A DNA stretch of 51,900 nt from positions 1 through 51,900 of the forward strand of contig JASHPG010000172.1 of NCBI GenBank assembly GCA_030038275.1, read 5' to 3'. Both the position numbers and the translations under genes were made by a program. Shown one piece after another: positions 8,594 through 26,328 of the stretch. The notes beneath the pieces were generated by a model. The model saw nothing but the letters and a program-made list of their open reading frames with translations, was not told where the DNA came from and searched no databases. Positions within the stretch are counted from its first letter, which is position 1, and every line of letters begins with the position of its first letter. This DNA is from Candidatus Acidiferrales bacterium (GTDB lineage Bacteria > Acidobacteriota > Terriglobia > Acidiferrales > UBA7541).

Positions 8594-8615
8594 TTTCTTA
8601 GAATTCTCCGACCAC

Positions 8616-8752
8616 TGCGGCCTACCGGGAGAGACATCCCACGGCGCGGCGGCGATGTCCTGGATTTGCGAGGGCTGAGGGTTCGGGTGGAAACGCCCGG
8701 GCCTCCCGTTTGGAAAGGGGAATGTTATCCGGCGGAGTTGCCGCCGGTGTAT
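8616..8752 (+). promoter_or_regulatory. Moco-type riboswitch aptamer in the moaA leader
   Basis: The leader has the conserved phrase GCCTCCCG...GGAAAGG found in the Moco (molybdenum cofactor) RNA motif, for example upstream of E. coli moaA. It is preceded by a helix with a GAAA tetraloop (CGGGTG/CGCCCG at 8685-8700) and by GACATC/GATGTC (8633-8638/8654-8659). It is followed by CCGGCGG/CCGCCGG (8729-8735/8741-8747). The aptamer ends directly at an intrinsic terminator before moaA, a molybdenum cofactor gene, which is the expected regulatory layout. Boundaries are estimated by eye. A tungsten-cofactor variant cannot be excluded. Confidence 0.75.
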
Positions 8753-16953: not shown

Positions 16954-17526
16954 TCAGTTTGAATCCAGTCGTCGTTCAGCCGCGCTTCTTTCATTCAGCA
17001 GTGGTAAGATTAATTTCTCGACGTTTGCGGTGTATTCGAAGCCGATGATTTTCTGCCGCAAGATACCCCGGCGATCGTAGATAAACGTCGTCGGAAGCCC
17101 TTGCAGTTCCCCGAACTTTGCCGCAATCGCAGGCCCTCCAATTGCCAGCGGGTAAAGCACTCCGATTTTCTGCGCAAAGCGAACCGGATCCTCCGTATCC
17201 GCCATCATGGTCGCCTTAAATCCCACTACCGCCAGCCCCCGCGATCCGTAGTGGTCGAGCAGGTGCTGATATCCGGGCATCTCCTTCTTGCACGGCTCGC
17301 ACCAGGTCGCCCAAAAATCCACGATCGCTACCTTGCCCCGCAGCTCCGACGACGAAAATTGATTGCCCTGAAAATCCTTCACCGTGAAGTCCGGCAGCAT
17401 CGATCCTATTTCACCGGCGCGTGGAGCCGTTGCCGTGGCGTTTACCATTCGCGACGGTCGGCTGCAACCCGCAAGTAACGCAGCCACCAGAGCAATCGCC
17501 CACATCCGCAACCTGCGACTCGTCAT
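16954..17526 (-). CDS. TlpA-like thiol-disulfide oxidoreductase lipoprotein
   Basis: The 190-residue protein has a lipoprotein signal ending LLAGC (Cys21), then a TlpA/ResA-type thioredoxin domain with LPDFTVKDFQGN, active site WATWCEPCKKEM (Cys76 and Cys79) and the cis-Pro loop LQGLPTTFIYD. Family members reduce disulfides in periplasmic or membrane-anchored partners. The chosen ATG lies eight bases after the end of the HMA selenoprotein gene, and an alternative start would overlap it, so the two are translationally close. I infer that it may reduce the selenylsulfide or diselenide form of its neighbour. Both of its own active-site residues are ordinary cysteines. Confidence 0.8.
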   Translation of the reverse strand: MTSRRLRMWAIALVAALLAGCSRPSRMVNATATAPRAGEIGSMLPDFTVKDFQGNQFSSSELRGKVAIVDFWATWCEPCKKEMPGYQHLLDHYGSRGLAVVGFKATMMADTEDPVRFAQKIGVLYPLAIGGPAIAAKFGELQGLPTTFIYDRRGILRQKIIGFEYTANVEKLILPLLNERSAAERRLDSN

Positions 17527-17533
17527 CGGATGC

Positions 17534-18052
17534 TCATTCCTTTTTTTTAACCTCAAGGACTGTAAGCTTCAACTCTTTCGGAACCTGCTTCTTCTTGGCC
17601 TGCCCTTTTTCAAATAACCGTCCCTTCACCGTCACAACCGTCTGCGATCCGGCCAGCGCTTCGAGCTGCGCCGATTGCTGATTCGGCGATATCTCGAACG
17701 AGCGCCCCGGAGCGTACGTCAAGCTCAATCCTTGCGCCGTTCGCGTCACTCGACCGCTCACCGTCGCGTCCATTTCGCCCACGCTAACGCCGCTGTCGTA
17801 AGTTGCTTTCAGCAGCTCTCGCGGATCGATTTCGCCGTCATCTTTCGGAGTAATCTCCGCCGTCCCATCCCGCAAACTCACCAATGCTTTTGCCACGCCA
17901 GCCTGGCGTTCCAGGGATTTTTGCACCCCGTAAGCTCAAAAATTTCAAGTCATGCCCTCAACGCGCATTTCCACGTGCCGAATTTGCGCCTGCACGACCG
18001 GCACGCAAACAGCGCTCAAAATCAAAATCGCCGTAATCCTAGCCGCTTTCAT
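17534..18052 (-). CDS. Periplasmic HMA-domain selenoprotein with UxxU motif (two in-frame TGA codons)
   Basis: Read through two TGA codons, this is a 172-residue protein. GGGGAGGG precedes the ATG. Residues 1-22 are a signal peptide ending VVQA. Residues 24-43 read RHVEMRVEGMT-U-NF-U-AYGV, then KSLERQAGVAKALVSL and TAEITPK. This is the heavy-metal-associated fold (GMTCxxC...GV), and the two TGA codons (17947-17945 and 17938-17936) fall exactly on the two metal-binding cysteines, Sec36 and Sec39. No other stop interrupts the frame. Residues about 95-172 form a Lys-rich beta-type domain I do not recognise. It sits between an outer-membrane barrel gene and a TlpA-like gene, downstream of an RND efflux operon. 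Likely role: periplasmic capture of soft metal ions or metal-linked redox. Two independent nonsense mutations at exactly these codons are improbable. Confidence 0.82.
17895..17909 (-). promoter_or_regulatory. Candidate SECIS hairpin for the HMA selenoprotein
   Basis: On the coding strand ACGCCA and TGGCGT form a perfect six-pair stem around the loop GGC. The loop begins about 32 bases after the second TGA and starts with two G residues, as expected for bacterial SECIS elements. It is about 41 bases from the first TGA, beyond the usual range. An alternative short stem, GGGG with TCCC, lies between them and could serve the first TGA. Prediction is by eye. Confidence 0.45.
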
Positions 18053-18063
18053 TGGTCCCTCCC

Positions 18064-19023
18064 CTATAAGTGCAGCCGAAACTGCTGTGTAATTCCGAAA
18101 ATGATCTGCCGCCTCACCGGCATGTAAGCAATCCCCGATGAGTGCGCCACGTCCCAATCGACGCCAACCCACACATCCATCCCTGGCCGCGCGTCCACGT
18201 ACGTCGTCACGCCGGCAAGCAGCGCATCTCCTCCGCTACCGGCCTGCTCGACGCCTCCCACTCGATCGTTCTGCGCGTGCAACCACGTCACGTCCGGTCC
18301 GATGAACCAATCTCGGCTGGCGTACTTCGATTCATACGGCCGGTACGAAAGCCAAAACCGCGACGAGATTTCATCTCCCAATTTCGTGTCCTGCGTCCCG
18401 GTTGTCCGAAGCAGCGAACGAAAATCCTCATCGGCAACGAGCCGCCGGATGTTGAACACGCCGGTGTAGGTCCAGTTCGCGCCAAGAAAAAAATCGGCTG
18501 ATCCGGACCCTGCTTGCAAGCCTGCGGGCAAGAGCGCGCCGCTCTCGTCTCTCAGGTCGGTTCTCCCGGTTGGCAGCTTGGGACCGAATGTCACCGATAA
18601 CTGCGACGTTCCGCGCGGCGAATCTTTCCGGTAGAACCGGTATTTCACCAGCACCATCGTGTCTCCGAACCCTGTTCCTCTGGCTTCGGGCGCTGTGCTG
18701 CTGCCGCCAAAGTCGAAATGGTTCGCTACGATCGGTGCCGTCACTTCCAAGTCGAAATTAGAAAAGAATCCCCACGTGAAATCGAAATCCCCATCGTAAG
18801 AAAACGTCGGGCGCGCGGTGACAGGAATAATCCCGCCCAGCGCAGCAACTGGTTCTCGCGTTGCAAACGTTGAGCCATACGATATCAGCGCACCGCCGGG
18901 GAAAATCGGCGGAGCGGTCTCGGGAGATGGCCCTTGCGCCCGCGCTATCGCTGGTACGAACGCCAAAATGGACGCAACCACGTACGCACGAATTCGCGCG
19001 CGCACCGCATGGGACTGAACCAT
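18064..19023 (-). CDS. Outer-membrane beta-barrel protein (MetA-pathway/transporter-like)
   Basis: The 319-residue protein has a signal peptide (about 1-30, ending AIARAQ) and alternating beta-strand segments such as DFDFTWGFFSNFDLEVTAP, LVKYRFYRK, QLSVTFGPKLPTG and VWVGVDWDVAH, ending in the aromatic-rich QQFRLHL expected at the end of a barrel. The pattern resembles the 'phenol MetA-like/transporter' outer-membrane family of unknown substrate. The ATG at 19023 has GGAGGAGG immediately before it; an earlier TTG is embedded in that ribosome site. It precedes the HMA selenoprotein by 11 bases, so the two are almost certainly cotranscribed. Confidence 0.65.
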   Translation of the reverse strand: MVQSHAVRARIRAYVVASILAFVPAIARAQGPSPETAPPIFPGGALISYGSTFATREPVAALGGIIPVTARPTFSYDGDFDFTWGFFSNFDLEVTAPIVANHFDFGGSSTAPEARGTGFGDTMVLVKYRFYRKDSPRGTSQLSVTFGPKLPTGRTDLRDESGALLPAGLQAGSGSADFFLGANWTYTGVFNIRRLVADEDFRSLLRTTGTQDTKLGDEISSRFWLSYRPYESKYASRDWFIGPDVTWLHAQNDRVGGVEQAGSGGDALLAGVTTYVDARPGMDVWVGVDWDVAHSSGIAYMPVRRQIIFGITQQFRLHL

Positions 19024-19091: not shown

Positions 19092-19436
19092 CTAGATTCG
19101 GAGGGGTAAAGAGTTCGCGCTAAATAACGAACCAGGCGGAGCGTGGGATCGTGCAACACCACGCGACAGAAGAGTCTGAACGGCGCACAATGCCGCACGC
19201 GAAGAAACGGCCGCCGAGCGAATCACATTCGGCGGCCGGATTTTTTCAACGCTGGCGTTGACGAATGGCGAGTGCGAGGCCGGCTGCGCATTGCAGCAAT
19301 TCTTTCTATGCGAACACGGCATATTCTTGCAGCACTGCATCGCCTGCTGCGGCGACATCGCGTACGAGCAGTCATTCGCGTACGCCGCGAGCGAAAGAAC
19401 GATAGCTATCGCGAGTGCTGCCTTTGAAACGTACAT
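19092..19436 (-). CDS. Small exported Cys-rich protein
   Basis: The 114-residue protein has a signal peptide (KAALAIAIVLSLAAYA) followed by a cysteine-dense segment: DCSYAMSPQQAMQCCKNMPC, then KNCCNAQ. That gives seven Cys in about 30 residues plus several His and Met. The rest is polar and ends with SHAPPGSLFSANSLPLRI. The composition suggests binding of a thiophilic metal such as Cu(I), Ag or Hg(II). No curated family is recognised, though a similar layout occurs in other acidobacterial proteins from memory. It lies 68 bases upstream of the outer-membrane protein gene and 57 bases downstream of the VOC gene, in the same direction. Confidence 0.6.
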   Translation of the reverse strand: MYVSKAALAIAIVLSLAAYANDCSYAMSPQQAMQCCKNMPCSHRKNCCNAQPASHSPFVNASVEKIRPPNVIRSAAVSSRAALCAVQTLLSRGVARSHAPPGSLFSANSLPLRI

Positions 19437-20821: not shown

Positions 20822-23800
20822 TTACAGTAATTGCTTTGTGGGTTTTAGCCAGTAGCTTGCGAACACCGGAATCAGAAGCAGAATCGCGAACGGCGCTGTC
20901 ACCATACCGCCAACCACCACGCGCGCCAGCGGCTGCTGTGCCTGCACCCCAATTCCCGTTGCCATCGCGGCCGGCAACAGTCCCAACCCTGCCGCCGCGC
21001 ACGCCATCAACACAGCGCGCATTTCCGCCACGCCGCCTTTTTCGATCGCTTCGAGCCTGGAGTTCGTGCCCGTCTCTTGCTTGCGTATGCCCGAAACTAC
21101 TACCACTCCTCCCAGCGTGCACACGCCTATAACCGATGCAAACCCCACCGCCGCCGAAATGCTGAACGGCGTGTGCGTGATCAGCAGTGATAGCACTCCG
21201 CCCGTCGCCGCGAACGGCAGCATTGCCAGCACGAGCGCGGCGTCGCGCAGGGAATTAAACGCGGTGAATAGCAGGCCGAGGATAATCACCAAGCTGATCG
21301 GGATGATCACTGCCAGTCGCCGCTGTTCTTCCCGCAGGCTCTCGTACTCGCCGGCCCATTCCAGGTGGTAGCCCTCGGGCAGATGGATTCGCTGCGCGAT
21401 TCGCGCCTGCGCCTCCTCCACCGTGCTCGAAAGGTCGCGCCCACGCACGCTAAACTTGATGGGGATATATCTCCGCCCGCCCTCGCGATAAATCACGAAC
21501 GCGCCTTCGTGCAGCGATACGTTTGCCACTTGGCCCAGCGGCACGCGTCCGCCGTCCGGAGTCGGAAGCAAAATGTTGCGAATGGCTTCCGGCGATTCTC
21601 GGTATTTCTTTTGATACCGGATCACGAAATCGAACCGCCGGTCTCCCTGCAGAATCTGCGTCGCGGCGATTCCGCCGATCGCCGCCTGCACCGCCGTATC
21701 CACGTCCTGCGCCATCAATCCGTAGCGCGCGCTCGCGTTTCGATCGATTGATACCAGCAGCTCCGGCTGGCCCGTTTCCGGAAATACGCCCAGGTCCGTA
21801 ATTCCCGGGACTCCCGCCATCACGTCGCGAATCTTGTCCGCTTCCGCCACCAGCACGTCGATGTCGTCGCCAAACAATTTCAGCGAGTTTTCTCCCTTTA
21901 CGCCGGACATCGCCTCTTCCACGTTGTCCTGAATGTTCTGCGAAAAGTTGAAATCGATCCCTGGAAACTTCTCCAGCCGCTGGTCCATCTGCCGGATCAG
22001 ATCGGGTTTGCTGATACCGTGTGGCCACTGCCCAGGCTGCTTTAGCGACACCATGAACTCGACGTTATTGAACGTCGTCACGTCGCTTCCGTCATCAGGC
22101 CGCCCCATCTGCGAAACAACCTGCGTCACCTCCGGGTACGTCAGCAAAATCTCGCGAATATCGTGTGCCATTCGCGCGCCGGTTTCATACGACGCGTCCT
22201 GCGGCAGCGTCGCCCGCACCCACAAATTCCCTTCTTCCAGCGCGGGCATGAACTCGCCTCCAAGGAACGATCCCAGCGCCAGCGTCACCACCAGCGCTGC
22301 CGCCGCGATTCCAAGCACGCTTTTTCGGTGCTTCAGTGTCCACGCCAATGTCTGCGAGTAATGCCGCCCAAGGAATTCCACGAGCCTCGTGCTGTGCTTC
22401 TTCACGCTTTCCGGGCGTATCCAGGAGGCCAGGACGGGCGCGAAGAAAATGGAAAAGAGCAACGCACCCGTCAACGCGAAGCCGTACGTTTCAGACATCG
22501 GCGCGAAAATTCTTCCCGGCACGCCTTGCATGCTGAACAGAGGAATCAACGCAACGATGATCACCAACACCGAAAACAGTACCGGTCGCACCGCTTCCGC
22601 CGTCGCCTCGGCCACGATCTCTTGCGACGTGATTCCGTGCGGCGCCGATTGTAGCCGCCGGTAAACGTTCTCCAGCACGATCACGCTCGCGTCCACTAGG
22701 ATTCCGAAGTCGATCGCCCCGATGGAAATCAGGTTCGCCGATCCGCCGCCCATCACCATCAGCGCAAATGCGAACAGCAGCGCGCAAGGAATTGTCAGCG
22801 CGGCGATCAGCGACATCGGCAGGTCTCCCAAAAACACGATCAGGATCGCCGTCACCAGCGCCAATCCCATTAGCACGATGTCGCGAACCGTCGATGTGGT
22901 CAGATGGATCAAGTCGGTCCGGTCGTAAAGCGTCACGAGCTTCATGCCGGACGGCAACAGCCCATTGTTTAGGTCCTTTACTTTTTCCTTGAGTGCCTTC
23001 AGTGCTGGCAGCGACTGCTCTCCGCGCTGCAGCAGCACGATCCCTTCGATCGCGTCGTCATCGTGGTTCACGCCCACCAGCCCCAGCCGCGGTTCCGTTC
23101 CTTCGTGAACGTTCGCCACGTCGCTCAAAAACACCGGCACGCCGCTGTGCTCCGCGATCAGCACGTTCTTCATGTCCTGCAAATTTTCCAGCAACCCAAT
23201 CCCGCGTACGTTGACGCTCTGCGCGCCCATCGTCAGGTAATTGCCGCCGGCATTCGCGTTGCTGGCCGCCACCGCCGAAATCACCTGCGGCAGCGTCACG
23301 TTGTATTGCAATAGTTTCTGTGGATCGACCTCTGCTTGGTATTCACGCGTCGTTCCTCCAAACGACGCCACGTCCACGATCCCCGGCACCTGCTTGATTT
23401 CCCGCGTCACGAACCAATCCTGCGTCGCCTTCAGCTCGTTCAAGCTGTACGACGGCCCGTACAGCCGGTAACGATAGATTTCTCCGATCGGCGATTCCGG
23501 CGAAAGCTGCGGACTCAGTCCTCCCGGCAGCGTCAAGTTTTGCAGCCGGTTCAGCGCCTCTTGCCGGTCCCAGTAGTAATCGCTGTCGTAACTGAAATAG
23601 AGCTTCACGTCGCTCAGTCCGAAAATACTGATCGACCGCACCTGGTCCAGGTGCGGCATGCCAAAGAGCGCCGTTTCCACCGGCACCGTCACCTGCTGCT
23701 CCATTTCTTCGGCGGACCACGACGCATTCTGCGTGATGAATTCCACCATCGGCGGCGAGGGATCGGGATACGCCTCGATGTCCAGACGTGAAAACATGTA

Positions 23801-23881
23801 CGCGCCGCCCGCGACCCACGCGGCCAATGCCACGATCACCAGCGGCCTATAGCGAAGAAGCGATCGAATCAGCGCGCGCAT
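20822..23881 (-). CDS. Heavy-metal efflux RND pump, CzcA/CusA family
   Basis: The 1019-residue inner-membrane protein has the RND layout: TM1 (residues about 14-31), large periplasmic loop, TM2-6, second loop and TM7-12. The fourth-helix motif GAIDFGILVDASVIVLEN carries both Asp residues of the HME proton relay. The DFGx3D form fits pumps for divalent cations (Zn, Co, Cd, Ni) better than CusA-type Cu/Ag pumps, although the canonical GA after the second Asp is AS here. It exports metal ions across both membranes with the adaptor and TolC-type genes upstream. It starts four bases after the adaptor stop. Confidence 0.9.
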   Translation of the reverse strand: MRALIRSLLRYRPLVIVALAAWVAGGAYMFSRLDIEAYPDPSPPMVEFITQNASWSAEEMEQQVTVPVETALFGMPHLDQVRSISIFGLSDVKLYFSYDSDYYWDRQEALNRLQNLTLPGGLSPQLSPESPIGEIYRYRLYGPSYSLNELKATQDWFVTREIKQVPGIVDVASFGGTTREYQAEVDPQKLLQYNVTLPQVISAVAASNANAGGNYLTMGAQSVNVRGIGLLENLQDMKNVLIAEHSGVPVFLSDVANVHEGTEPRLGLVGVNHDDDAIEGIVLLQRGEQSLPALKALKEKVKDLNNGLLPSGMKLVTLYDRTDLIHLTTSTVRDIVLMGLALVTAILIVFLGDLPMSLIAALTIPCALLFAFALMVMGGGSANLISIGAIDFGILVDASVIVLENVYRRLQSAPHGITSQEIVAEATAEAVRPVLFSVLVIIVALIPLFSMQGVPGRIFAPMSETYGFALTGALLFSIFFAPVLASWIRPESVKKHSTRLVEFLGRHYSQTLAWTLKHRKSVLGIAAAALVVTLALGSFLGGEFMPALEEGNLWVRATLPQDASYETGARMAHDIREILLTYPEVTQVVSQMGRPDDGSDVTTFNNVEFMVSLKQPGQWPHGISKPDLIRQMDQRLEKFPGIDFNFSQNIQDNVEEAMSGVKGENSLKLFGDDIDVLVAEADKIRDVMAGVPGITDLGVFPETGQPELLVSIDRNASARYGLMAQDVDTAVQAAIGGIAATQILQGDRRFDFVIRYQKKYRESPEAIRNILLPTPDGGRVPLGQVANVSLHEGAFVIYREGGRRYIPIKFSVRGRDLSSTVEEAQARIAQRIHLPEGYHLEWAGEYESLREEQRRLAVIIPISLVIILGLLFTAFNSLRDAALVLAMLPFAATGGVLSLLITHTPFSISAAVGFASVIGVCTLGGVVVVSGIRKQETGTNSRLEAIEKGGVAEMRAVLMACAAAGLGLLPAAMATGIGVQAQQPLARVVVGGMVTAPFAILLLIPVFASYWLKPTKQLL

Positions 23882-23884
23882 CGG

Positions 23885-25027
23885 TCAGTTTTCCGCCGCT
23901 TCTCGCAGCAGCAGCGCGCCCTGCGTCACCACCGTATCTCCCGCCCTCAAGCCGTTCTCGATCTCGACCGAACCTCCCATCGTTTGCCCCAGCGTCACTA
24001 CTCGACGCTCGAAGCGCCCGTTTCGCTCGGATACGAATGCGTAAGCCATGGTCCCTTCCCGGATCACCGCCGTGGACGGCACCACGATCCCTTTGCTCGT
24101 CGATTTCAGCAGCCAGATGCTTCCGAACATCGCCGGTTTCAGCCGCGCGCCAGGATTCGCCAGCACCACGCGTACGTGCAGTGTCCGCGTATTCGGATCG
24201 ACGGCATCCGCAACCGCGCTCACCTGTCCGTTCCACGATTGCCCCGGATACGCATCCATCGTCACCACCGCCGGTTCTCCTGGATGCGCTGCGGTCAACT
24301 CCTGCTCGTAAATGTCTCCCACCGCCCATACGCTCGAAATATCGGCGATCGTGCACAGCGGCTGCGCCGCCGAAAGCGCGTTCGAGTACTCGCCCTGCGC
24401 CGCGCCGATATCCAGCACCACGCCGGAACGCGGAGACACCACCCGCAAATCCGCCCCCGCATGGTCTGGATCCACGCCAAGCACTTGTAATTGCGCGCGG
24501 GCCGCTTGCACTTCGGCTTCAGCCATTTGTGCGTCGCCCTGCGCCTGCTGCAAATCCTTCTGCGCGATCGCGCTGTGCGCGTAAAGATACGTTGCCCGAT
24601 CGAGCTCCTTCTTCTTCACTTCGCTATCGATCGCAGCCTTGTGATAGTCGGCTACCGCCCGCGCCAAGTCGCTGCTGTCCAGAATGGCCAACGTCTGCCC
24701 TTTTTCCACGTGGTCCCATGGCCGCACTTTCATTTCCGTGATTCGCCCGCCCGCCGGTGCATAGACGTGCACCACGCGCGTCGGATCGGCCTGAATCTGC
24801 GCCGGCAGTTCCAGATAATTCGGTACGGCCGAAACCTGGACCGTTTCTGTCGTAACTCCGCTGGCATTCGGCGCCACGTATTCTCCGGCCAAACCCGAGC
24901 TAGTAGTCGCATTCTGCGTCACCGCTGAATCCTGCTTCGCTACGCTGTTGCCGCAGCCTGCCAGCACCATTGCCAATGCTAGGCACAAAATTGCCGCCGC
25001 CAAAAAAATCGCAAGCGTCCGCCTCAT
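23885..25027 (-). CDS. RND efflux periplasmic adaptor lipoprotein (CzcB/CusB-like)
   Basis: The 380-residue protein has a lipoprotein signal ending VLAGC and the membrane-fusion-protein order: barrel-sandwich halves (VVHVYAPAGGRITEMKVRPWDHVEKGQTLAILD and the matching return VVSPRSGVVLDIGA), an alpha-helical hairpin between them, a beta-barrel (SVWAVGDIYEQELTAAHPGEPAV) and a membrane-proximal domain near the C-terminus. It links the pump to the outer-membrane channel. Its start overlaps the stop of the TolC-family gene by four bases (ATGA), indicating translational coupling. Confidence 0.88.
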   Translation of the reverse strand: MRRTLAIFLAAAILCLALAMVLAGCGNSVAKQDSAVTQNATTSSGLAGEYVAPNASGVTTETVQVSAVPNYLELPAQIQADPTRVVHVYAPAGGRITEMKVRPWDHVEKGQTLAILDSSDLARAVADYHKAAIDSEVKKKELDRATYLYAHSAIAQKDLQQAQGDAQMAEAEVQAARAQLQVLGVDPDHAGADLRVVSPRSGVVLDIGAAQGEYSNALSAAQPLCTIADISSVWAVGDIYEQELTAAHPGEPAVVTMDAYPGQSWNGQVSAVADAVDPNTRTLHVRVVLANPGARLKPAMFGSIWLLKSTSKGIVVPSTAVIREGTMAYAFVSERNGRFERRVVTLGQTMGGSVEIENGLRAGDTVVTQGALLLREAAEN

Positions 25028-26328
25028 TGCAAAACCTCCCGGCCCACCGCCATGTTCAATTGCGCTGCCGCCGTCAAATAAGAACCTATCAAGTTCAGAT
25101 AACTGAGCCGGATGGTCCGGTAATCGTTTTCCGCGCTCAGAAAATCCAATAGCGACTCCGCCCCGCGTTCGTACGATGTCCTCACCGTCTCGCGCACCCG
25201 GCTCGCCTGCGCCAGGTACGTCTGCTTGTACGGTCGCAGCAACGCCACGTCGCTATTCACCTGCGCGTACGCCGAATCCACGTCGCCGAAAACCTGCGCC
25301 CGCGCCGCATCCAGCAGTTGCTGATTTTTTGTGACGTCCAGTTCCGTGCGCAGTTTTTCTCCCTGATTGCGGTCGAAAATGCGCAGCGGCACGTTCACGC
25401 TGATTCCCAGCGTTTGCAGTCCGGTTGTATTTGGGTTGTTCGTGGACGCGTTGTGCGTGTACCACGCGCTGAACGTCGGATCCGTCGAACCATCGGCAAC
25501 CGCCAGTCGATGGTTCACCTGCGCCTGATCGACCGATTGCATTGCTGCCCGCAGGTCCGGCCTGTTCGCTAGCGCCAGATTCCTAATATCGTCGAGCGTC
25601 GGTAGTTCGTCCGTGTAGTCAAACGGACCGGTTACGTCGAACTGGTTCACCGGCGTTCGCTCGTTCAGCAGCTCCAACATCTGAATTTTCGCCGTCCGCG
25701 GGTTCACTTCCGCGGTTTGTAAGTCCGACTCGAACTGCACTCGCTGCAATTCGAGCCTGTCCATATCCAATCCCGAGATATCACCCACGCTAAGCCGGTC
25801 GCGGCTGATGGTGAGCACGCGGTCCCAGTAACCGAGGTTGTCCTGCGCGAGTTGCAGCACCGCCTTCGCCTGCAGCGTATCGACGAACGCCGCCCGCAAA
25901 TTGAAAAGCAACGTCCTCCGCAGGTCGGCCTGATCCGAAACGGCTATCGCCGTCCCAGCTTCCGCGCTTTTCAACCGCAGTTCCCGCTTGTGGTCGCGCT
26001 CGTGTAAATAGCTGATCTGCGCGACCTCATACGTGCCCGCGAACGGCGTCCATATCCCCTTATTGGGCGCGATCTGCGTCCCGTCCTCCGAAACAGTAAG
26101 TTCCGGATTGGGTCTCAGGTACGCGCTGGTCTCTTCTGCGCGCGATTCGCTAATCCCCGTTTCGCCGGCCTGCAACGTCGGATTGTTCTGCTCGAAACGC
26201 TGCTGAACCTGAGCCCACGTCAGCGGCGTCGCCGTCTGCGCCCGTATGCCGCCCGCACCCAAAAGAACGCCAATCCAAGCCACTAGCCAAAATTTCCACA
26301 GCCCCAATCGAGCTGCTCTCGATCTCAT
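25024..26328 (-). CDS. TolC/CzcC-family outer-membrane efflux protein
   Basis: The 434-residue protein has a signal peptide ending GGIRAQ and two repeats of the outer-membrane efflux protein fold, each with a long coiled-coil region (about 40-230 and 245-430). SYLHERDHKRELRLKSAE and PDLRAAMQSVDQAQ are representative helices. It forms the outer-membrane exit channel of the CzcCBA-type pump encoded downstream, with which it overlaps by four bases. It is the first gene of the pump operon; about 130 bases separate it from the FG-GAP gene upstream. Confidence 0.88.
   Translation of the reverse strand: MRSRAARLGLWKFWLVAWIGVLLGAGGIRAQTATPLTWAQVQQRFEQNNPTLQAGETGISESRAEETSAYLRPNPELTVSEDGTQIAPNKGIWTPFAGTYEVAQISYLHERDHKRELRLKSAEAGTAIAVSDQADLRRTLLFNLRAAFVDTLQAKAVLQLAQDNLGYWDRVLTISRDRLSVGDISGLDMDRLELQRVQFESDLQTAEVNPRTAKIQMLELLNERTPVNQFDVTGPFDYTDELPTLDDIRNLALANRPDLRAAMQSVDQAQVNHRLAVADGSTDPTFSAWYTHNASTNNPNTTGLQTLGISVNVPLRIFDRNQGEKLRTELDVTKNQQLLDAARAQVFGDVDSAYAQVNSDVALLRPYKQTYLAQASRVRETVRTSYERGAESLLDFLSAENDYRTIRLSYLNLIGSYLTAAAQLNMAVGREVLQ

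What the first reader, a model, noticed from the sequence alone, without database searches (positions are those of the whole stretch)
17534..18052. HMA-domain protein with both metal-binding cysteines encoded as TGA (UxxU)
Seen directly: the frame from the ATG at 18052 runs through TGA at 17947-17945 and again at 17938-17936 and then stays open for 133 codons. The residues before (VEGMT) and after (AYGV...KSLE...GV) are the heavy-metal-associated domain pattern GMTCxxC, and the two TGA codons fall on the two Cys positions. Established: bacteria insert selenocysteine at UGA with SelB and SECIS hairpins, and HMA CxxC pairs bind soft metals. Inference: a periplasmic diselenol (UxxU) metal-binding or redox protein. 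Two random stops landing on just these two codons in an otherwise intact, well-spaced gene is very unlikely. I cannot check whether this family has been named.
Basis: partly seen in the sequence, partly recalled or inferred. Interest (0 to 1): 0.95.

Follow-up and report, generated by a model that had tools for sequence, protein, structure and literature searches.

The report
Twin-selenocysteine metal-binding protein gene
An Acidobacteriota-type bacterium appears to make a small metal-binding protein whose two metal-gripping cysteines are both replaced by selenocysteine, written as two 'stop' codons, so databases mostly hold only the broken-off tail of this widespread protein.

Summary
The frame from ATG 18052 crosses TGA at 17947-17945 and 17938-17936 and ends at TGA 17536-17534. 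Read through, it is a 172-residue protein with an HMA domain (33.6 bits, cut-off 24.8), both TGAs on the GMTCxxC cysteines.

It is not chance: 25 of 399 genomes of the class carry a homologue with two in-frame TGAs, and 53 homologues with a readable motif are UxxU 29, UxxC 8, CxxC 16. The genome has selA, selB, selC and selD. Four relatives with CxxC, each 99% complete, lack SelB. The RNA downstream carries two abutting hairpins, more stable than synonymous-codon shuffles, with compensatory changes.

A UxxU metal-binding selenoprotein family is already named (NF041115), but this protein scores 43 of the 95 bits required. It adds a C-terminal OB-like domain and an operon with an outer-membrane-like and a TlpA-like protein. 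I call it a new variant of a known kind: probably an exported diselenol soft-metal carrier, metal unknown, with an unusual two-hairpin recoding signal. Sec insertion itself is unproven.

The parts
17534..18052 (-). UxxU selenoprotein gene: probable signal peptide (residues 1-22, by eye), HMA domain (about 23-93), OB-like barrel (about 94-172)
   Evidence: translation; Pfam HMA; AlphaFold2 pLDDT 90.2; homologues
17945..17947 (-). first recoded TGA (residue 36, first Cys of GMTCxxC)
17936..17938 (-). second recoded TGA (residue 39, second Cys of GMTCxxC)
17913..17929 (-). hairpin P1, starting after a 15-nt spacer behind the first TGA; the pairing register differs between subgroups
   Evidence: (3 bp only); invariant GGG-GTG codons
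17893..17911 (-). hairpin P2, loop beginning at the 32nd nucleotide after the second TGA; 5 of the 7 family pairs form in this gene
18064..19023 (-). outer-membrane-like protein gene (ATG 19023 by eye; the ORF tool starts at TTG 19035); no Pfam family found
   Evidence: ORF; cluster in 24 of 27 loci; Pfam
16954..17526 (-). TlpA/ResA-like thiol-disulfide oxidoreductase gene with a WCEPC site (ATG 17526 by eye; the ORF tool starts at TTG 17556)
   Evidence: AhpC-TSA and Redoxin; cluster in 16 of 27 loci; active site
19092..19436 (-). small Cys-rich, probably exported protein gene (ATG 19436 by eye); no Pfam family found
   Evidence: ORF; cluster in 7 of 27 loci; Pfam

Best explanation
This is a genuine selenoprotein gene in which SelB and tRNA-Sec decode two UGA codons nine nucleotides apart, giving a UxxU pair in place of the CxxC of an HMA domain. 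The protein is probably exported, folds as an HMA domain followed by an OB-like barrel, and probably grips a soft metal ion (such as Cu(I), Ag(I) or Hg(II)) between two selenolates. The TlpA-like protein of the same operon probably keeps the pair reduced, and the outer-membrane-like and small Cys-rich proteins probably handle the same metal. Shown: the frame, conservation of both TGAs, Sec/Cys exchange among homologues, Sec machinery in the genome, conserved RNA hairpins, the gene neighbourhood, and a confident fold prediction. Inferred: Sec insertion, export, metal binding, TlpA as reductant. Odds: selenoprotein about 0.95; soft-metal carrier about 0.6; no particular metal is favoured. The confidence given is for the selenoprotein with a soft-metal site.
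For: Two TGAs in 25 of 399 genomes of the class. UxxU 29, UxxC 8, CxxC 16 of 53 homologues. SelA, SelB, tRNA-Sec and SelD in the genome. CxxC relatives G071, G095, G123 and G222, each 99% complete, lack SelB and nest in a UxxC group. Hairpins: 30 UxxU genes fold at -21.3 kcal/mol against -12.8 for synonymous shuffles and keep 6.73 of 7 P2 pairs against 4.68; compensatory changes in P1 and P2. TGA is an ordinary stop in 7 of 11 neighbouring genes, so the code as a whole is not changed. Fold: the nearest solved structures are copper chaperones and MerP. Conserved neighbours.
Against: No direct proof of Sec. SelB is near-universal in the family (39 of 41 near-complete members without the gene have it), so co-occurrence there proves little. 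SelB was not found in four genomes whose match has two TGAs: G003, G012, G635 (72-79% complete) and G499 (95% complete; its motif was not picked up by my pattern). The window's own RNA does not stand out against dinucleotide shuffles (z about -0.6) and forms only 5 of 7 P2 pairs. CxxC relatives also fold somewhat below their shuffles (-15.4 against -12.4). No metal specificity could be tested.
Confidence: 0.75

Rival explanations
1. A selenoprotein, but a redox enzyme rather than a metal carrier: the UxxU pair cycles between diselenol and diselenide, exchanging electrons with the TlpA-like protein.
For: A TlpA-like gene follows directly in 16 of 27 loci. A review says that most known Sec proteins of Trx-like type are redox proteins (PMC13188914, passages).
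Against: HMA is chiefly a metal-carrier fold, here best matched by copper chaperones and MerP. Relatives stand beside a metal-type MerR-family regulator (L081) and, by eye, a multicopper oxidase (L079).
Confidence: 0.2
2. The gene is broken, or the TGAs are sequencing errors: a pseudogene whose tail alone, from GTG 17926, is translated as database entries suggest.
For: 111 of 120 listed database homologues start just after the TGA pair.
Against: The same two TGAs in 25 genomes; dN/dS 0.17-0.32 before the first TGA in 5 of 6 pairs compared (the sixth gave 1.6 from one synonymous change); conserved signal-peptide-like start and HMA first strand, which the tail would lack; 8 homologues with TGA plus Cys and 16 with Cys twice.
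Confidence: 0.02
3. TGA is read as another amino acid (a changed genetic code or a suppressor tRNA), not as Sec.
For: 6 of 120 listed homologues were annotated with W at both sites.
Against: 7 of 11 neighbouring genes end in TGA; Cys, not Trp, stands at the sites in stop-free homologues; a complete Sec set is present; hairpins follow the TGAs.
Confidence: 0.02

Closest known systems
NF041115 UxxU_metal_bind, 'metal-binding (seleno)protein' (in review PMC13188914 'Metal-binding protein (putative mercuric reductase)', UxxU, 2 Sec, citing the 2007 Olavius symbiont selenoproteome paper)
   Same: HMA-type domain with UxxU at the metal-binding cysteines
   Different: That model has 74 positions; this protein has 172 residues with an OB-like second domain, and scores 43.1 of the 95 bits required
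MerP (TIGR02052) and CopZ-type metallochaperones (NF047957, NF033795)
   Same: HMA fold and the GMxCxxC site; MerP is periplasmic (established knowledge)
   Different: Cys in place of Sec; no second domain; scores 38.7 of 92.55, 49.1 of 85 and 35.9 of 91 bits
NF045683 MerT_CopZ_Se, heavy metal transport selenoprotein
   Same: A selenoprotein family with a CopZ-like part; matched by the HMA part
   Different: 235-position fusion model; score 30.7 of 375 bits
Bacterial SECIS element as in E. coli fdhF (recalled)
   Same: A hairpin in the coding sequence shortly after the UGA; an invariant G in the P2 loop
   Different: Two abutting hairpins behind two UGAs nine nucleotides apart; no Rfam family matched 17800-18060

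Membership tests
bacterial selenoprotein | in-frame UGA at a position held by Cys in homologues | tested here: met
   UxxU 29, UxxC 8, CxxC 16 of 53 homologues
bacterial selenoprotein | Sec machinery in the genome (SelA, SelB, tRNA-Sec, SelD) | tested here: met
   567, 382, 64 and 363 bits, each over its cut-off; tRNA-SeC by ARAGORN
bacterial selenoprotein | SECIS-like hairpin downstream of the UGA | tested here: met
   conserved, covarying hairpins; function not tested, bSECISearch not run
bacterial selenoprotein | Sec present in the protein | not testable with these tools
   needs 75Se labelling or mass spectrometry
HMA domain (PF00403) | score over Pfam's gathering cut-off and the HMA fold | tested here: met
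NF041115 UxxU_metal_bind | score at least 95 bits | tested here: not met
   43.1 bits; three TGA-bearing relatives 40.6, 51.4 and 47.5
NF041115 UxxU_metal_bind | UxxU at the HMA metal site | tested here: met
MerP (TIGR02052) | score at least 92.55 bits | tested here: not met
   38.7 bits
CopZ family metallochaperone (NF047957) | score at least 85 bits | tested here: not met
   49.1 bits
OB fold (C-terminal domain) | clear structural match to a solved OB fold | tested here: inconclusive

The most novel reading that the evidence does not exclude
A phylum-wide, so far unnamed family of exported HMA-OB proteins uses a diselenol soft-metal site, and its mRNA carries a two-hairpin signal (P1 abutting P2, possibly stacked end to end) dedicated to decoding two UGA codons nine nucleotides apart: either each hairpin serves one UGA in turn as the ribosome advances and melts P1, or the pair acts as one composite SECIS.
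Probability: 0.45. Interest if true: 0.72.

Novelty: new variant of a known kind. Interest (0 to 1): 0.58.

Why it matters
It would add a widespread selenoprotein family that databases record mostly as truncated hypothetical proteins. It offers a natural UxxU / UxxC / CxxC series for measuring what selenium gains a metal site, and a defined system for asking how bacterial SelB decodes two closely spaced UGAs.

Tried and rejected
Folding the window's own downstream RNA against dinucleotide shuffles gave no signal (z about -0.5 to -0.7); only the comparative tests did. Rfam listed nothing in 17800-18060 up to E 5. SelB and tRNA-Sec co-occurrence inside the family does not discriminate. The RND-type genes upstream (20822-26328) did not form a neighbour cluster in four or more loci, so I do not count them as part of the unit. 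Strict one-hairpin-per-UGA is weakened by L057, a UxxC gene nested among UxxU ones that keeps P1 and 6 of 7 P2 pairs. P1's pairing register differs between subgroups, and over 24 genes RNAalifold kept only 3 P1 pairs. The C-terminal domain matches OB folds only weakly, so OB-like is a description, not a family. A MerT link is weak: the L092 neighbour scores PF02411 E 0.03, below cut-off, and DUF4149 better (E 0.0007, also below cut-off); the L090 neighbour had no MerT match. The outer-membrane-like and small Cys-rich proteins tested had no Pfam family over cut-off. The alignment used wrong coordinates and was not used.

Literature: the listings, and passages (not whole texts) of PMC13188914, PMC5029168, PMC1794560, PMC12013277 and PMC9312934, showed me no Acidobacteriota HMA UxxU selenoprotein of this architecture. 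The papers PMC12013261, PMC1976440 and PMC9879109 are not held, so this is no proof of absence.

Rows dropped: 4 of 31 neighbourhood loci without a motif match; 9 of 33 loci without a motif match; L017 as a copy of L019, L025 (contig end) and L060 (same gene as L106) left out of the 53, and one more (L120, 116 residues) left out of the tree of 52 and of the 15 CxxC genes. Earlier calls of L054 and L060 failed and were recovered.

Full report
WHAT IS THERE. On the minus strand an ATG at 18052, behind ggggaggg, opens a frame that meets TGA at 17947-17945 and 17938-17936 and then runs to TGA at 17536-17534. With both TGAs read as Cys it is a 172-residue protein with an HMA domain above Pfam's cut-off (33.6 bits against 24.8, residues 29-83). 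The TGAs are the two cysteines of GMTCxxC. Residues 1-22 look like a signal peptide (by eye; no predictor was run). A close relative with the same TGA pair is a Candidatus Acidiferrales bacterium (86% identity), so the window is probably from Acidobacteriota.

NOT CHANCE. In 399 genomes of the class the search gave 37 matching stretches in 33 genomes: 26 stretches (25 genomes) with two TGAs, 5 with one, 6 with none. In the family 16 of 89 genomes have the gene. A motif scan that demanded a stop at both places found 25 loci in 24 genomes; all 50 stops were TGA, with motifs UNFU, UPLU and USLU. A profile search over 396 genomes of the phylum matched 71; many weaker rows there cover only the HMA part of long frames and look like other proteins. 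Among 53 homologues with a readable motif, UxxU stands in 29, UxxC in 8, CxxC in 16; the UxxC and CxxC codons were inspected. On a tree of 52 of them the three states need 5 changes (shuffled mean 20.2), and four CxxC sequences (L101, L103, L106, L112) nest inside a UxxC group (the root is a midpoint). Their genomes G071, G123, G222 and G095 are each 99% complete and have no SelB match, the picture expected when Cys replaces Sec after loss of the machinery. Before the first TGA, 5 of 6 pairs of genes show dN/dS 0.17-0.32; the sixth gave 1.6 from a single synonymous change. Of the 120 database homologues listed (396 found), 111 begin just after the TGA pair, 6 have W at both sites and 3 have C at both.

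MACHINERY. The genome (88% complete) holds tRNA-Sec (64 bits; ARAGORN: tRNA-SeC, anticodon tca), SelB (382 bits), SelA (567 bits) and SelD (363 bits, with one in-frame TGA of its own). Of 32 genomes whose match has one or two TGAs, 30 have a SelB match and 26 a tRNA-Sec match; of 41 near-complete family members without the gene, 39 have SelB and 35 tRNA-Sec (one search ran with stricter filters). So the machinery fits but does not discriminate inside the family. SelB was not found in G003 and G012 (73% and 79% complete), G635 (72%) and G499 (95%), each with a two-TGA match. TGA is an ordinary stop here: 7 of 11 neighbouring genes checked end in it.

THE RNA SIGNAL. Among 17 UNFU genes, codons 42-43 (GGG GTG), 49-50 (CGC CAG) and 52 (GGC) never vary although synonyms exist, and codons 37-56 are more constrained than the rest (p 0.003). 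RNAalifold pairs these blocks: over 24 genes P2 and 3 pairs of P1, over the 11 more divergent genes both hairpins. P2 keeps 94-96% of its pair cells, against 29-48% in slid registers. In the 11 divergent genes P1 and P2 together keep 98.5%, with four pairs changed on both sides, against 33-51% slid. Against shuffles that keep the protein and draw on the gene's codon usage, 30 UxxU genes fold at -21.3 kcal/mol (shuffles -12.8, best shuffle mean -14.3) and keep 6.73 of 7 P2 pairs (shuffles 4.68, best 5.23); 15 CxxC relatives keep 2.87 (shuffles 2.68), though their folding energy (-15.4 against -12.4) is also somewhat low. The window's gene is among the weaker cases (5 of 7 P2 pairs; no signal against dinucleotide shuffles). 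Seven UxxC genes have instead one hairpin, N-CACGC-CGTG(A/C)-GCGTG-N, whose outer pair is C-G in five, G-U in one and A-U in one (sequences, read by eye). P1 begins after a 15-nt spacer behind the first TGA; the P2 loop begins at the 32nd nucleotide after the second; P1 and P2 abut; G45 in the P2 loop is invariant in 30 genes. Bacterial SECIS hairpins also lie shortly behind the UGA (recalled). One reading is serial use, P1 for the first UGA and P2 for the second once the ribosome has melted P1; the other is one composite element. L057, a UxxC gene within the UxxU group, keeps P1 and 6 of 7 P2 pairs, which leans towards the composite.

HOW IT MOST LIKELY WORKS. The ribosome inserts Sec twice under SelB; the product is exported; the UxxU loop binds a soft cation between selenolates; the TlpA-like protein keeps the pair reduced; the outer-membrane-like and Cys-rich proteins act on the same metal. 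The first step is strongly supported by sequence; the rest is inference from fold and neighbours.

KNOWN OR NEW. NCBIfam has a UxxU metal-binding selenoprotein model, NF041115, and reviews list a UxxU 'putative mercuric reductase' or 'metal-binding protein' (passages). This protein scores 43.1 against a cut-off of 95, three TGA-bearing relatives 40.6-51.4 and three database homologues 19.0-33.7, so I do not file it there. The kind, a UxxU HMA selenoprotein, is known; the HMA-OB architecture, the operon, the Sec/Cys series across the phylum and the two-hairpin signal appear undescribed as far as the searches named in Tried and rejected go.

Noticed in passing
8594-8736 (+): Molybdenum/tungsten cofactor riboswitch (RF01055, 56.7 bits) at the head of a MoaA-like radical-SAM gene (named by eye).
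   Followed up: no
G000 C193:13778-14725 (L094), outside the window: The genome's own SelD has an in-frame TGA, so SelD is probably a selenoprotein too.
   Followed up: no
19092-19436 (-): Small Cys-rich, probably exported protein (CC..MPC, CC..) with relatives before the outer-membrane-like gene in 7 of 27 loci and no Pfam family; by eye similar proteins stand in L078 and L090.
   Followed up: partly
20822-26328 (-): RND efflux genes: ACR_tran pump and HlyD_D23 adaptor, TolC-like by eye; not a conserved neighbour of the selenoprotein gene in the other loci.
   Followed up: partly
G732 C87:46108-47626 (L097), outside the window: Two homologues side by side, one with an in-frame TGA and one without (CxxC), and further HMA stretches some 10 kb away.
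   Followed up: no
G023 C2 and G286 C465, outside the window: Two tRNA-Sec matches each; in G286 they lie about 260 bases apart.
   Followed up: no
L057: A UxxC gene nested among UxxU ones that keeps P1 and 6 of 7 P2 pairs; a natural test of how the hairpins divide the work.
   Followed up: partly
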